Part shown: positions 47,292 to 53,705 of the stretch, in pieces
Position numbering within the stretch: the stretch's first letter is position 1
Layout of the letters: every line of letters begins with the position of its first letter
Assembly (NCBI RefSeq): GCF_001766235.1
Contig: NZ_CP015164.1
Span: forward strand, 1,659,501 to 1,723,500
Length of the DNA stretch: 64,000 bases
Direction of reading: 5' to 3'
Origin: Acetobacter ascendens
GTDB taxonomy: Bacteria > Pseudomonadota > Alphaproteobacteria > Acetobacterales > Acetobacteraceae
The notes under the pieces: model-generated
Told to the model about the DNA's origin: nothing
Databases searched by the model: none
What the model saw: only the letters and a program-made list of their open reading frames with translations
Program-made: the position numbers and the translations under genes

Positions 47292-48368
47292 TCATGATTT
47301 ATTCTGAATATTTCGGATAAGATCATGAATAAAATGCAGTTTGTGCACAACTCCCTGCGTTAACGTAAACGGATAAAAATCAGGCAAACCCATGGAACGA
47401 TTCAAATTATTGACTGCATAAGTTAACGGAACCCATGCATTGATAATTTCCTCAAAAGGCATGGTTGTGTAAGGGTCTCCATGAGGAGAAAGAAGCGCAT
47501 CTCCGCCTACTGTGGCGCTTACGGTCATATCGTAAGCTAATGCTGTTTCCAGTGTAGAAACGATATGGAAGTAATGCGCCCATGTTTCTGCAAAATCTTC
47601 CCATGGATGAGATGTCGCATAAAAGCTTACAAAATTCTCGCGCCAGTTCTGTGGGGGAGATTGCGCATAATAAGTTTGTAATGCAGCCTGATAATCTGCG
47701 CGATCATCGCCAAATATAGCACGGCAGGCTTCCAGATTTCCGCCATCTCTTACCAGAATATTCCAGTAATAATGTCCAATCTCATGGCGAAAATGCCCTA
47801 GAAGGGTGCGATAATACTCTCCCATTTCAATACGCATTTTCTCACGATAGGCATCATCCGCTTCTTTGGTGGCAATTGTGATAATGCCATTGCTATGACC
47901 CGTCATGATAGCAACCGAGCCATCTGCTGCATCATCCAGAAAATCAAATGCTAAGCCGTTTTCTGGGTCTTGCCGTCGATTTTTGAATGGAAGCTTCAAA
48001 CGCAGGATTGTGTAAAACATCCTGTGTTTTGCAACTTCCAATTTGTACCAACGGTCTTTATTTTCCGGCACATTCAGGTTAGGAATCATACGGTTAAATT
48101 GGCAGGCAACACAAAACCCAGCAGTTGCACTACTATCTGCTGCCAATGTCAGCCAATTACACACACCATAGACATGATTGATACAAAAGGCGCGTGCTTT
48201 CCCTTCAGCCTTTTGTTCTAAAGGAAACCATGTACCATCTGCCTGTGGTTTTAACGCCGTCATGGCCACAAACTCGGGTAAATACCCTACGGTAATACCA
48301 CAATATCCACACTGCGTTGCCTCAAACCCCACCAAATGATTGCAGGATTGGCAGGAAAACCGTTTCAT
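47292..48368 (-). CDS. Putative zinc metallopeptidase with zinc ribbon
   Basis: Protein of the putative zinc-binding metallopeptidase family (DUF2248-type), 358 residues. The N-terminal zinc ribbon has Cys6, Cys9, Cys20 and Cys23, and further cysteine pairs lie near residues 62-89. The catalytic motif is HEIGH (His195, Glu196, His199) in LGHFRHEIGHYYWN, with a candidate third ligand in the ATSHPWEDFAETWAHYFHI segment. The family often accompanies transglutaminase, ATP-grasp and alpha-E genes in a predicted peptide-ligation/processing system, and all of these are here. The start overlaps the transglutaminase stop by 4 bp. The natural substrate is unknown. Confidence 0.85.
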   Translation of the reverse strand: MKRFSCQSCNHLVGFEATQCGYCGITVGYLPEFVAMTALKPQADGTWFPLEQKAEGKARAFCINHVYGVCNWLTLAADSSATAGFCVACQFNRMIPNLNVPENKDRWYKLEVAKHRMFYTILRLKLPFKNRRQDPENGLAFDFLDDAADGSVAIMTGHSNGIITIATKEADDAYREKMRIEMGEYYRTLLGHFRHEIGHYYWNILVRDGGNLEACRAIFGDDRADYQAALQTYYAQSPPQNWRENFVSFYATSHPWEDFAETWAHYFHIVSTLETALAYDMTVSATVGGDALLSPHGDPYTTMPFEEIINAWVPLTYAVNNLNRSMGLPDFYPFTLTQGVVHKLHFIHDLIRNIQNKS

Positions 48369-49204
48369 TGTCGGGGCAAGTGTTGCACTTGCATGAACAC
48401 ATCAAATACAGCCTTACAACAATCCAGCACGCCAGAAACCGGTGCCGCATCCTGCGGTGTATTTGCAACCGCCAACGGAATATGCCCTGCCCCCGCCAGA
48501 AAACCAGATGTGGTATCAAACCCAATCCAGCCCTTTTGCGGAATAAGAACCTGCGCCCACGCATGCAGATCACCATTCAGCGTTGTAATTTTACCTTCCG
48601 CACATTCTTCCTGAATAAGATAACCTGAAACAAAGCGGGCCGAAAACCCAAGTTGGCGCGCGACACTTACCAACAACCATGCGCTATCTCGGCAAGAACC
48701 AGTTGCGCGCTGCAATGTTTCCTCAGCCGTCCAAACACCCGGCTCCATACGCCGTTGATATTGAATCCGCTGTGCAATAACTTGATTAAGTGCCTTAATT
48801 TTATCCAGCGGATCTTGCGCTGCCAGAACTTGGTGCGCACCGATGAGTGACTGCATGTTTTTACTTATACGCTGCGGTGTTAGCCCTTCTTCCTCACGCA
48901 AAGGTTCAGGGCATATGGCTGCATCAGCAACTGGATCATACGGCGTCAGATCCACCATAAGCGCCACTTCAATATCAAACTGCGTTACCTGATCGGCACA
49001 TTCAACGCATGCAACCTGATTGCCCAATGCATCTTGTGTCCATTTTACCAAGGACTCAGTTGGTTGCACATTCAGATTATATGAGAGCACAGGTGTGCGA
49101 GAATACAGCGTAGGGCGCAGCCGGATTGTTTGTGGCCCCATGCTGACAGGCCTATCATACCGATAGCAGGTTCGATGCGTCAGCATAACGTGAGAACTCA
49201 TCAA
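48365..49204 (-). CDS. Transglutaminase-like cysteine protease
   Basis: Cytoplasmic transglutaminase-fold protein of 279 residues. An N-terminal beta domain (TCYRYDRPVSMGPQTIRLRP) precedes the catalytic core with Cys171 in RATGSCRDSAWLL, His214 in NGDLHAWAQV and Asp230 in WIGFDTTSG, the full papain-like triad. In this gene context such proteins are thought to act as peptidases or amide-bond processors rather than cross-linkers. It is followed, with a 4-bp overlap, by the zinc peptidase gene. It diverges from the ATP-grasp gene, leaving 244 bp for promoters. Confidence 0.88.
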   Translation of the reverse strand: MMSSHVMLTHRTCYRYDRPVSMGPQTIRLRPTLYSRTPVLSYNLNVQPTESLVKWTQDALGNQVACVECADQVTQFDIEVALMVDLTPYDPVADAAICPEPLREEEGLTPQRISKNMQSLIGAHQVLAAQDPLDKIKALNQVIAQRIQYQRRMEPGVWTAEETLQRATGSCRDSAWLLVSVARQLGFSARFVSGYLIQEECAEGKITTLNGDLHAWAQVLIPQKGWIGFDTTSGFLAGAGHIPLAVANTPQDAAPVSGVLDCCKAVFDVFMQVQHLPRQ

Positions 49205-50579
49205 ACCCTAACCCTGTCTTTTATCTTATTCATGGCAAGCATTGTTGCCTCGTTCAACAAGAACACACACTTGTAGCGTAAAACCATAGCAGCATGACGC
49301 GCACATGCAATACATATCCAACACAATCAAAAACTTGCTCAAGTAGCCGCTATTTTAGACTTGGCAAACATCTGGAAACCTGTTCAGTTAATTCGGTAGT
49401 GAAACAAGTTGAGGCCATACTGGCCACCAGCCTGACGGGAGAGAAACCATGACACCCACAGCCCTGCATGCTCCCCCTCTGGCTGCTTCCTCTGGATTAC
49501 TGGACGATTACCGTATCCCTAATTTTTTTTGTGAGTTGATGAATCGGCGTGATCCAACGCCCCCTGCCCTACAATGCGTAAAAGACCGGCTTGCAGCTCT
49601 CAGTCTGCCAGAACTGCGCCGCAGAACGCAGGCTGCAGAGGCCCAACTTTACCGTATGGGCATTACCTTTACAGTGTATTCAGATAAGGAAGCTATTGAC
49701 CGTATTCTGCCGTTTGATGCCATCCCGCGCGTTATTACCGCGCAAGAGTGGGAACACGTAGAGCGGGGTGTGCAACAGCGTATTCAGGCTATCAATCTGT
49801 TTTTGCATGATATTTACCATGATCGAAACATCCTGCGTGATGGCATATTGCCCGCCAAACTGGTGCTGAATAACCCCAATTACTGTGATGCCATGATAGG
49901 GGTAGATGTTCCGGGCGGCGTTTATGTGCATATCAACGGCACGGATCTGATACGGGACGATAACGGCCAGTTTCTGATTTTGGAAGATAATGCCCGCACG
50001 CCCTCCGGTGTATCCTACGTTATTGAAAACAGGCACATGATGCTGCGCCTTATGCCGGATCTGGCATCTGGCCTACCCATTCGCTCGGTTGATGAATACG
50101 GCCTTCGCCTGCACCAGACCTTGTGTGAAGTGGCACCAGAAGGGGTGGCTGACCCGCAAGTCGTTCTTCTTTCACCCGGTATTTATAATTCCGCTTACTT
50201 TGAGCATGTTTTTCTCTCCCGCGAGATGGGCGTGCCCCTTGTGGAAGGTAAAGATCTATTTGTTGAAAATCATCGGGTGTTTATGCGTACGGTTAATGGG
50301 CCACGTGCTGTTCATGCCATTTATCGCCGCTTGAATGATGATTTCTTGGATCCGTTGGTGTTTAATCCGAACAGTCTTCTGGGAGTTCCCGGATTAGTGG
50401 AAGCGTATCGACGCGGCAACGTCACACTCGCCAACGCCTTGGGCACAGGTGTTGCTGATGATAAAGCCGTATACGCTTATATGCCACGTATTATTCAGTA
50501 CTATTTAGGGCAGGACCCTATCCTGCAAAGTGTTGAAACGCACATCTGCGCAGAACCAGACGGCCTTGCTTATACGTTA

Positions 50580-51484
50580 GAGCCCTTTTGGAAATTCACG
50601 GATGAGCGTTTCGGCGTAGCATGAGGCTTCCCATGGCGATGTGGATCATGGCCTCTGCGACGTCGATCCGCTGTTCGTAGTCCTTCACAAGGCGACGCCA
50701 GCGGATCATCCAACCGAAGGTCCGTTCCACAACCCACCGACGCGGCAGGATTTCAAACCCTTTTGCTGTCTCTGACCGCCGGATGATCTCGACTGTGAAG
50801 TCGAGAAAAGTGGCCTTATCCATCAACTGGAGGCGGTCATAGGCTCCATCGGCAAACAGGTGCTTCACCCAAGGCCAGCGTTTGCGAATGGCATCAAGGA
50901 TCATCTGTCCTCCTGCACTGTCCGAAATATCGGCTGTTGTCAGCTGGACCAGGAGAAGGCGGCCATCCGTATCAACTGCGATGTGACGTTTCCGACCGAC
51001 GATCTTCTTGCCTGCGTCATAACCACGTGTCTTTGCGTGGGGTGCCTTGATACTCTGGCTATCAATGACACCACCCGATGGACTGGTTTCGCGTCCTGTC
51101 GCTTCACGATCGAGCATCAGACAGACATCATGAATGGTCTGGAACAGGAAACGGCGCATCAGCCTGCGGAACCACCAGTAAACCGTTTGACATGGGCCAA
51201 AATGAACCGGAAGCATCTCCCAACCGCAGCCTGAGCGCACGAGATAGCGCAGAGCATTGATGATCTCACGGAAATCGGTTGTCCGTTTCCGACCACGCCG
51301 GTTCGCAGGGGGCATCAGAGGCGCTATGCGCTCCCATTCCTCATCTGTCAGATCAGACGGATAGCGTTTCGTCTTGCGTGTAATTCCGGCCATGCGGCCT
51401 CGTTGTGCTGGCGTCCACATCCTGCCTTTGAATCACGCTCAAAACCTCTTGAAAACCTATCATAGCGAATTTCCAAAAGGGCTC
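50580..51484 (-). mobile_element. IS5-family element, IS1031-like
   Basis: A complete 905-bp insertion. Perfect 18-bp terminal inverted repeats start GAGCCCTTTTGGAAATTC (50580-50597 and, inverted, 51467-51484). The 3-bp duplication TTA flanks it (50577-50579 and 51485-51487), matching the TNA target preference of the IS1031 group common in acetic acid bacteria. It carries one transposase gene, opposite in direction to the ATP-grasp gene. Confidence 0.95.
50596..51420 (-). CDS. IS5-family transposase (IS1031 type)
   Basis: DDE transposase of 274 residues encoded by the first insertion. The catalytic acids are in GGVIDSQSIKAP (Asp), HLFADGAYDRL (Asp) and WVVERTFGWMIRWRRL (Glu, with the IS5-type Tyr/Arg-rich spacing). 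The N-terminal DUF4096-like segment (YPSDLTDEEWERIAPLMPP) is typical. The frame is intact, so the element could still be active. The stop falls inside the left terminal repeat. Confidence 0.95.
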   Translation of the reverse strand: MWTPAQRGRMAGITRKTKRYPSDLTDEEWERIAPLMPPANRRGRKRTTDFREIINALRYLVRSGCGWEMLPVHFGPCQTVYWWFRRLMRRFLFQTIHDVCLMLDREATGRETSPSGGVIDSQSIKAPHAKTRGYDAGKKIVGRKRHIAVDTDGRLLLVQLTTADISDSAGGQMILDAIRKRWPWVKHLFADGAYDRLQLMDKATFLDFTVEIIRRSETAKGFEILPRRWVVERTFGWMIRWRRLVKDYEQRIDVAEAMIHIAMGSLMLRRNAHP

Positions 51485-51587
51485 TTAGCCAATATGAACA
51501 AACTTGTAATAAAACCTGTTGGAGAATCAGGTGGTTATGGCTTGCTGATTGGCCCCCATGCCAGCCAGAAAGAACTACGGCGTGTCG

Positions 51588-52342
51588 TCAGTTAAGCAGG
51601 ATGATGATTGAGGCGAACTGCACGGCTGCGAGGAAGGTCGATTTCAGTTTATCGTAGCGGGTTGCGATAGCGCGAAACTGCTTGAGTTTATTGAAGAACC
51701 TCTCAACAAGGTTCCGTTCGCGGTAGAGAGAAAAATCGGTTTTCCGTCGTGTCGTTCTGTTGCGTTTTGGCGGGATGACCGGGGTAATCCCGCGCTGTAT
51801 CAGCCGATCGATCAACCTGTCCGCGTCATACGCCTTGTCAGCAAGGAAAGCATCCGGTTCGATGTTTTCCAGAAGTGGTTCTGCCTGGGTGATATCGGCA
51901 TCCTGTCCCGGTGTGATGCCGAGTTCCACTGGATTGCCCAGAGCGTCGCAGATGGCATGGATCTTTGTAGTTAGCCCGCCTCGTGATCGTCCGATGGCCT
52001 GATCCGTGCCCCTTTTTTGAGAGCTCCGGCACTATGCTGATGCGCTCGGACAATTGTGCTGTCGATCATCATGTATTCGTTGTCGTAATCAGCGGCCAGA
52101 TAACGAAATATCCGTTCGATGACGCCGCTTTCACACCAGCGGCGCAGACGCCGGTGCACGTTTTTCCAGTCACCGAAACGGGCAGGAAGGTCGCGCCATG
52201 GAATACCCGCGCGATAGCGATACAACACCGCCTCCACGAACAGACGGTTGTTCACCGCAGTGCCGCCGACATAGCCTTCTCGACCAGGAAGAAGATCCTT
52301 TATCCGCTCCCACTGGTCATCGCGTAAACTATAGCGCCGCAT
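51588..52342 (-). CDS. IS427-type transposase OrfAB via -1 frameshift
   Basis: OrfA (52342 to 51971) starts MRRYSLRDDQWERIKDLLPG and holds the first catalytic Asp in YMMIDSTIVRAHQHSAG. OrfB (ending 51588) holds FLADKAYDADRL and NLVERFFNKLKQFRAIATRYDK, the remaining DDE residues. The frames meet at the A6G stretch at 52018-52012. Slipping back one base there joins OrfA to GTDQAIGRSRGGLTTKIHA, the sequence expected between the two. The two halves together give a full-length transposase of about 250 residues. A longer OrfA start at 52414 adds residues not found in the family. Confidence 0.9.
52012..52018 (-). promoter_or_regulatory. Slippery site A6G for programmed -1 frameshifting
   Basis: On the minus strand AAAAAAG follows CTC in the OrfA frame (CTC AAA AAA GGG). 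Re-reading one A puts the ribosome in the OrfB frame and restores the conserved transposase sequence. OrfA alone would stop 14 codons later. Confidence 0.75.
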
Positions 52343-52697
52343 CTGTCTGTCTCCCCAAAAAAACGGGAAAACAGTCAGCACACGCAGACACAAAGTACAA
52401 CCCTCACGTGCCACTCTCAGGGCTTAACTGACGACACGCCGTAGCAGATTTTAGAGAAAAATTACTGGCTGATCCTTCCAACTATATCAGCCAACCCGTT
52501 ATCAATTTGTCTGTCACCCCCACCCTCTGCCCAGATGGCGTGGAAGCCAGACATGTAGACCTTCGCCCCTTTGCCCTAACCGGCCGTTCTGTTTGGGTTT
52601 TACCCGGCGGGCTGGCCCGTGTGGCGCTCCGCAAAGGGTCTCTGGTGGTCAATTCTTCTCAAGGTGGTGGCTCTAAAGATACATGGGTGATGGCATC

Positions 52698-53705
52698 ATG
52701 ATGAACGAAACACAGGGCCATCTGCTCTCTCGCTATGCAGAATGCATGATGTGGCTAGCGCGTTATATGGAGCGCACAGAAAATCTAGCCCGCCTTCTAG
52801 AAGTGACAGAAACATTTGTGCGCGATGCCAATGGGCAGATTGCATGGCATTCCATTGTGCAAATTAACTCGGATGAGCAAACTTTCCTTGCCTTACATCC
52901 ATCAGGCGATGCAGATGCCGTAGCCAGCTTTTATCTGACTGAGCAGGCAAACCCGGCATCTATCTGCGCAACCGCCCATGCGATACGTGAAAATGCGCGC
53001 GCGGTTCGCCCCCTCGTTTCTATTGAAATGTGGACGCAGTTAAATGTGTTCACACGCTGGGTGCTGGATCTGAAAGAAAAGGATATTTATCAAAACAGCC
53101 TTTCAAGCCTGTGCACACATATCAAACAGGATTGTCAGGCCCATTTTGGCGTTACGGAAGGCACGCTTTACCGCGATCAAGCATGGCTTTTCTATAAGTT
53201 AGGCAAAACGCTTGAGCGGTGTGACCAGATTACGCGCTTGGTAGATATTCGCTACCATATGCTACTGCCCCAAGGGGAAGTTCCTGGCTCTGAAATTGAC
53301 ATCACGCAATGGACAGCCGTATTGCGCTCTGCGGCTGCTTACCATGCCTTCCGCCGTTTGCGGCCTGTTACAATTACACCTGCCAATATTGTAGGCTTTT
53401 TGCTGAAAAATGAAGGTTTCTGCCGCTCCTTAACCACCAATTTACGTTTAATGGATGAAACACTTGCGCTTTTAGCCTCTTACCCTGGCTTACGTTCACG
53501 TTGCAACCAACTGCAAGAATGTGTTGCAGAGCTACGCGTTACCCTTGCTGAACAAACTGCGGAAGACATTATTATCCGCGGCCTGCATGATTACATGAGC
53601 TGGATACAACAGCATCTTTCTCAATTGCAGGGGCAAATTGCATCTGAATTCTGGCCGCCTGTTTCGGCTGTGGCCGTTCAGACAGATTTTCAGATGCAAG
53701 CGTAA
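52698..53705 (+). CDS. Alpha-E domain protein
   Basis: All-helical protein of the alpha-E (DUF403) family, 335 residues, found next to circularly permuted ATP-grasp proteins and presumed to be their partner in peptide synthesis. The N-terminal motif [27 protein letters not shown] and the later [24 protein letters not shown] are the family's duplicated Glu/Arg-rich helices. The ATG at 52698 overlaps the ATP-grasp stop (ATGA), so translation normally depends on that gene, which is now disrupted. A start 5 codons earlier is possible. Its own reading frame is intact. Confidence 0.9.

What the first reader, a model, noticed from the sequence alone, without database searches (positions are those of the whole stretch)
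49449..52701. One ATP-grasp gene hit by two different IS5-family elements 90 bp apart
Seen in sequence: IS A (50580-51484) with TTA duplication and 18-bp ends, and IS B (51578-52441) with TA duplication and 20-bp ends, both inside one gene. Removing both restores a single frame of 493 codons with the family motifs intact. The remaining fragments carry no visible decay, so the insertions look recent. Two independent hits in a gene of about 1.5 kb suggest either a hot spot or selection for loss of this pathway, for example in a domesticated or laboratory strain.
Basis: partly seen in the sequence, partly recalled or inferred. Interest (0 to 1): 0.7.

Follow-up and report, generated by a model that had tools for sequence, protein, structure and literature searches.

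The report
Gene broken by two jumping elements
In a vinegar bacterium of the genus Acetobacter, a well-conserved peptide-ligase-like gene has recently been broken by two different mobile elements that both occur in many copies in that genome, which makes a natural knock-out but is otherwise an ordinary event.

Summary
IS A (50580-51484, TTA duplication) and IS B (51578-52441, TA duplication) lie 93 bp apart in one circularly permuted ATP-grasp gene; outside them one 493-codon frame continues and aligns end to end with intact relatives. IS A is IS12528 (99.6%). The gene is the genome's only CP_ATPgrasp_1 locus; 41 of 49 genus genomes carry it in one piece. Its past is constrained (dN/dS 0.03-0.05), with no relaxation seen on this branch; under the model used, inactivation falls in the last 4-8% of that branch at most. 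Both elements have burst here: 28 and 27 full copies, against 0-2 each in four near-complete relatives. 'Hot spot or selection' is not needed: random placement gives some gene-sized bin two hits in half of simulations, both targets are the elements' ordinary ones, and copies cluster genome-wide. Against pure chance: in A. lambici the gene is split between contigs, at least one of which runs into IS1032-type sequence.

The parts
49449..50579 (+). 5' part of the CP-ATP-grasp gene, 377 codons including the TTA target
   Evidence: PF04174 E 1.7e-131, profile 1-285 of 332; the frame runs 14 more codons into IS A (ORF 49449-50624, 391 aa)
50580..51484 (-). IS A: complete IS12528-type IS5-family element, 905 bp, TTA duplication
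   Evidence: ends and duplication; 99.6% to copies annotated IS12528 on G. oxydans 621H plasmids; 28 full copies in this genome
50596..51420 (-). transposase ORF of IS A, 274 aa
   Evidence: NF033580 241.2 bits, cut-off 110
51488..51577 (+). 30-codon middle fragment of the ATP-grasp gene, carrying KPVGESGGYG
   Evidence: KPVG(E/D/A)SGGYG at the same place in 79 of 80 named loci; the 80th (L072) was cut short in that alignment
51578..52441 (-). IS B: second, different IS5-family element, 864 bp, TA duplication, target CTAG
   Evidence: 27 full copies in this genome
51971..52414 (-). IS B transposase, first ORF (147 aa)
   Evidence: NF033580 134.1 bits
51588..51929 (-). IS B transposase, second ORF (113 aa as listed), presumably reached from the first by a -1 shift at A6G
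   Evidence: NF033580 120.1 bits; A6G run
52444..52701 (+). 3' part of the ATP-grasp gene, 85 codons and stop
52698..53705 (+). Alpha-E gene, open; this start overlaps the ATP-grasp stop (an in-frame ATG lies at 52683)
   Evidence: PF04168 E 2.9e-74; directly downstream of ATP-grasp in 77 of 80 named loci
48365..49204 (-). transglutaminase-like gene, divergent, open
   Evidence: PF08379 and PF01841; divergent within 1.5 kb in 75 of 80 named loci
47292..48368 (-). putative zinc metallopeptidase (Peptidase_Mx), open
   Evidence: PF15887 E 1.5e-106; within 3 kb in 66 of 80 named loci

Best explanation
The genome's only CP-ATP-grasp gene was inactivated recently by two separate, ordinary transposition events: IS12528 at a TTA and a second IS5-family element at a CTAG. 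Shown: two complete elements with their own duplications, a frame that continues outside them, intact homologues in the nearest relatives, a constrained past and no sign of later decay. Inferred: the product is inactive, because the frame ends 14 codons inside IS A and the conserved KPVGxSGGYG segment is cut off as a 30-codon island between the elements. Inferred: the double hit is a by-product of a recent burst of both elements, the second hit being free once the first had killed the gene (the order cannot be told). The Alpha-E, transglutaminase and metallopeptidase partners are still open.
For: Anatomy. Alignment over both junctions. 28 and 27 full copies: all 27 other full IS A copies have 0-5 mismatches to the window copy; of 25 other full IS B copies fetched (of 26), the 22 of equal length have 0-3, the other 3 are one base longer and were not scored. 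Four near-complete relatives: full-length IS A 0-2 and IS B 0-2 per genome, plus fragments. Targets: TNA at all 20 IS A sites with a matching duplication (of 28 sites); TA at all 26 IS B sites looked at (of 27), C before it in 21 and G after it in 18. dN/dS 0.032-0.047 against the three nearest relatives; window-branch N:S 5.5:44.5 against sister 6:45; share of the branch after inactivation at most 0.037-0.082 in three polarisations. Random two-hit probability 0.496.
Against: Only one genome per species is held, so it is unknown whether the insertions are fixed or confined to one culture. The simulation uses two IS kinds and equal bins, not real genes. Other IS kinds were not counted. Two gaps of 100 bp or less against 0.10 expected (P 0.004; one of the two is the pair in this gene) means placement is not random. 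A. lambici points to some recurrence.
Confidence: 0.88

Rival explanations
1. Selection for loss of this pathway in a fermentation or laboratory habitat, with repeated IS hits as the mutational route.
For: A. lambici LMG 27439 (L010 = G014) has the gene split at residues 447-448 between two contigs. The 109-bp tail of one is 100% identical to a plasmid copy annotated IS1032 family; the end of the other reads like the end of an IS5-type transposase, judged by eye from its translation. Three of 49 genomes have no match at all, two of them of only 1.5-1.7 Mb.
Against: 41 of 49 genomes keep the gene in one piece, and 78 of 80 named loci have it nearly full length in one stretch. Purifying selection is strong, and the neighbours in this genome are open. 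No enrichment over other genes was shown: in the same 80 loci the transglutaminase gene is nearly full length in one stretch in 70, has no match in 5 and is partial or split in 5, with divergence and draft errors possibly contributing.
Confidence: 0.1
2. A sequence hot spot for IS insertion in this gene.
For: Two hits 93 bp apart; the gene supplies a TTA and a CTAG.
Against: Such targets are common: 47 CTAG in the 64-kb window. The B target needs a CTAG that 1 of 79 named relatives has and the three nearest lack, which points to a synonymous CTG to CTA change in this lineage. IS clustering is genome-wide, not peculiar to this gene.
Confidence: 0.04
3. Assembly artefact.
For: Both elements are high-copy repeats.
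Against: Four-contig assembly listed as 100% complete; each element has exact duplications at its two junctions that match its own rule.
Confidence: 0.02

Closest known systems
IS-caused loss of function in acetic acid bacteria (IS1380 and ethanol oxidation in A. pasteurianus: title in a reference list; IS1031A and cellulose production: passage; gumD in Kozakia: start of abstract in a listing)
   Same: A chromosomal gene of an acetic acid bacterium inactivated by a mobile element
   Different: Two different elements in one gene; no phenotype known
Anbu-type operon (ATP-grasp, Alpha-E, transglutaminase, Anbu), as in Yersinia bercovieri (passages of PMC6376114; PMC5666114)
   Same: Same three families, ATP-grasp and Alpha-E adjacent
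   Different: No Anbu found: the one proteasome-family hit of the genome is followed by an ORF that reads like HslU (by eye), so it is taken as HslV; the transglutaminase is divergent and a Peptidase_Mx gene lies next to it
PDB 3N6X, putative glutathionylspermidine synthase
   Same: The intact homologue in L166 matches it over residues 55-490, E 1.2e-169
   Different: The window copy is interrupted

Membership tests
IS12528 (IS5 family) | Sequence identity over the whole element | tested here: met
   905 of 905 bases covered, 99.6% to copies annotated IS12528 family; the original IS12528 paper is not held
IS5 family | IS5-type transposase | tested here: met
   NF033580 above its cut-off for IS A and for both ORFs of IS B
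IS5 family | Short A+T target duplication and terminal inverted repeats | tested here: met
   TTA with 18 bp; TA with 20 bp; matching duplications at 19 of 27 other IS A copies and 25 of 25 other IS B copies fetched
CP_ATPgrasp_1 (PF04174) | Profile match over the cut-off | tested here: met
   438.6 bits against 23.1 for the 5' part alone
CP_ATPgrasp_1 (PF04174) | Unbroken domain with its conserved glycine-rich segment | tested here: not met
   profile match breaks off after position 285; KPVGESGGYG isolated between the elements
Anbu operon | Anbu gene present | tested here: not met
   single PF00227 hit in the genome, followed by an HslU-like ORF, judged by eye
CP-ATP-grasp enzymes | Ligase activity | not testable with these tools
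   no assay; phosphate release from ATP reported for the Yersinia homologue (passage)

The most novel reading that the evidence does not exclude
In fermentation-adapted Acetobacter the ligase step of the CP-ATP-grasp/Alpha-E/transglutaminase system is being discarded by selection through IS hits (this lineage and A. lambici independently), leaving the partner proteins as orphans and offering natural knock-outs for a system of unknown product.
Probability: 0.08. Interest if true: 0.45.

Novelty: new member of a known kind. Interest (0 to 1): 0.15.

Why it matters
It is a natural, recent null of a widely kept gene whose biological role is unconfirmed, in a food-associated bacterium, so it could serve as a comparison strain. 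It also illustrates that two hits in one gene are expected somewhere when two elements have burst in a genome. It does not change what is known about IS elements.

Tried and rejected
A proteasome-linked (Anbu) system: rejected, because the only proteasome-family hit is followed by an HslU-like ORF. Outward promoters in the IS ends that could drive Alpha-E: 1 promoter-like site in 49200-52800, on the - strand, against a mean of 3.3 in shuffles; nothing to report. Relaxed selection on the partners: Alpha-E window branch 3:17 against sister 1:46, Fisher P 0.08, and 0.18 and 0.26 in the other two polarisations (counts rounded); not taken as evidence. In G037 the gene lies on two contig ends, with no match to IS A or IS B better than E 0.02; unresolved. 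Naming the host strain: the best plasmid matches are to Acetobacter of the pasteurianus, ascendens, oryzoeni and pomorum names, but records of the own genome may be left out; not pursued. A domain-profile count of whole genes was replaced by a full-length count, because the profile ends before the break in G014.

Full report
What was checked. The coding sequence outside them is in frame: 377 codons, 30 codons and 85 codons plus stop once a single copy of each duplication is counted, 493 codons in all. The reading aligns without a break to intact homologues: 94.9% identity to A. pomorum over 492 residues, 96.5%, 97.4% and 96.3% to G026, G028 and G025. G026 and G025 are probably A. oryzoeni and A. 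oryzifermentans, because an IS match has identical coordinates in a named plasmid (35 and 37). G031 gives the same values as A. pomorum L001 and is taken as the same genome, so it is not an extra case.

The gene. The 5' part matches CP_ATPgrasp_1 with 438.6 bits; the neighbours are Alpha-E downstream, and transglutaminase-like and Peptidase_Mx genes on the other strand. In 80 named relatives Alpha-E follows directly on the same strand in 77 (two of the other three end at a contig end, and in L072 the ATP-grasp match is broken), the transglutaminase is divergent within 1.5 kb in 75, and Peptidase_Mx lies within 3 kb in 66. The locus is the only CP_ATPgrasp_1 match of the genome, seen as two pieces. 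The one solved structure found is 3N6X. Operons of this type were proposed to be involved in peptide synthesis or protein tagging (passages); in those passages the Yersinia ATP-grasp releases phosphate from ATP, and the physiological role is said to be unconfirmed. No Anbu gene was found here: the single proteasome-family hit is followed by an ORF that reads like HslU (by eye). A phrase search for 'circularly permuted ATP-grasp' gave 3 papers, seen as a listing only.

What the insertions do. The frame runs from the start codon into IS A for 14 codons. The middle fragment holds KPVGESGGYG; at this place 79 of 80 named loci have KPVG(E/D/A)SGGYG, the 80th (L072) being cut short in that alignment. 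I infer loss of activity.

How recent. dN/dS against the three nearest relatives is 0.032-0.047. Polarised counts on the window's branch are 5.5 N:44.5 S, 6:41 and 6.5:41.5, against 6:45, 3:56 and 4:39 on the sister branch; none differs significantly (P 1.0, 0.18, 0.74, rounded counts). If the gene evolved neutrally after the first hit, at most 3.7%, 8.2% or 6.5% of the branch lies after it. Among the copies fetched, IS A is identical to one other and IS B to eight others.

The elements. IS A is IS12528 by annotation of near-identical plasmid copies. It has 28 full copies here. In four near-complete relatives (3-4 contigs each) G026 has one copy at 99% and one nearly full-length at 85%, G025 and G048 have partial matches only, and G012 has none. 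IS B has 27 full copies here; G025 has two near-identical ones (99% and 98%), G048 one nearly full-length at 72%, and the other matches in these genomes are partial. The genome search listed 40 matches per element in the own genome, its apparent limit, so fragments are under-counted. IS A sites with matching duplications are all TNA (TTA 15, TAA 5 of 20, window included); IS B sites are TA in 26 of 26 looked at, mostly CTAG (one IS B copy at a plasmid contig end was not fetched). The TA duplication was tested at two other IS B sites: one was clear in three of three relatives, the other had TA in one and CA in two. At the window's B site the three nearest relatives have CTG where the window has CTA, and CTA followed by G occurs in 1 of 79 named relatives: a synonymous change apparently created the target.

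Is the double hit remarkable? No. Placing 52 chromosomal full copies at random, some bin of 1479 bp receives two or more in 49.6% of runs. Real copies are more clustered than random (gaps of 100 bp or less: 2 against 0.10, one of the two being this pair; 1 kb or less: 7 against 0.93), including an IS B copy 16 bp from an IS A copy at 1004-1006 kb. Of the other sites with a matching duplication, 8 of 19 (IS A) and 10 of 25 (IS B) have a frame open across both 150-bp flanks, against 77% of random 298-bp stretches from the first 48 kb of the window. So insertion in coding DNA looks under-represented but frequent, and there may be up to eighteen other interrupted genes for these two elements (some of those frames may be open by chance).

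Is loss recurrent? Of 49 genus genomes, 41 have the gene in one piece, 5 have it split (own, G014, G021, G030, G037) and 3 have no match. The earlier domain search had counted G014 as whole because the profile ends before its break. G014 is A. lambici LMG 27439: its contig end equals that of L010. Its two pieces meet at residues 447-448. One contig tail is 100% identical over 109 bp to a plasmid copy annotated IS1032 family; the other contig end reads like an IS5-type transposase end, judged by eye from the translation. The two ends do not show a clean matching duplication (TAA against TTA by my reading), so a single insertion is likely but not proven. This is the best argument for recurrent loss and keeps that rival alive at about 10%.

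Literature. IS-rich genomes and IS-caused loss of function are established in acetic acid bacteria: more than 280 transposons in A. pasteurianus IFO 3283 substrains (passage of PMC4686929), many extra IS elements in A. aceti 1023 (passages of PMC4047455), IS1031A and cellulose (passage of PMC9818992). I found no paper on this locus in the searches made; none was aimed at this strain by name.

Noticed in passing
L168 (G025) about 2970-2990: In G025 one extra C before the ATP-grasp stop puts ATP-grasp and Alpha-E in one 839-codon open frame. It could be a real fusion, like the separate paralogues of about 840-930 codons in other species that match both families, or a sequencing error.
   Followed up: partly
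IS A copies L103, L104, L105, L109, L112, L117, L121, L122: 8 of 27 other full IS12528 copies have unequal 3-bp flanks, 7 of these 8 still T-N-A on both sides. Recombination between copies or a mismatched central target base could explain it; not tested.
   Followed up: no
G000:C1 2148970 and 2223956 (L104, L103): Two IS12528 copies 75 kb apart share an identical 150-bp left flank but differ on the right, a trace of duplication or rearrangement.
   Followed up: no
L010 / G014 (A. lambici): The same ATP-grasp gene appears interrupted by an IS1032-like element, and its transglutaminase region is in two overlapping frames.
   Followed up: partly
G038, G039, G046: Three Acetobacter genomes have no match to either ATP-grasp or Alpha-E; two of them are only 1.5-1.7 Mb.
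   Followed up: no
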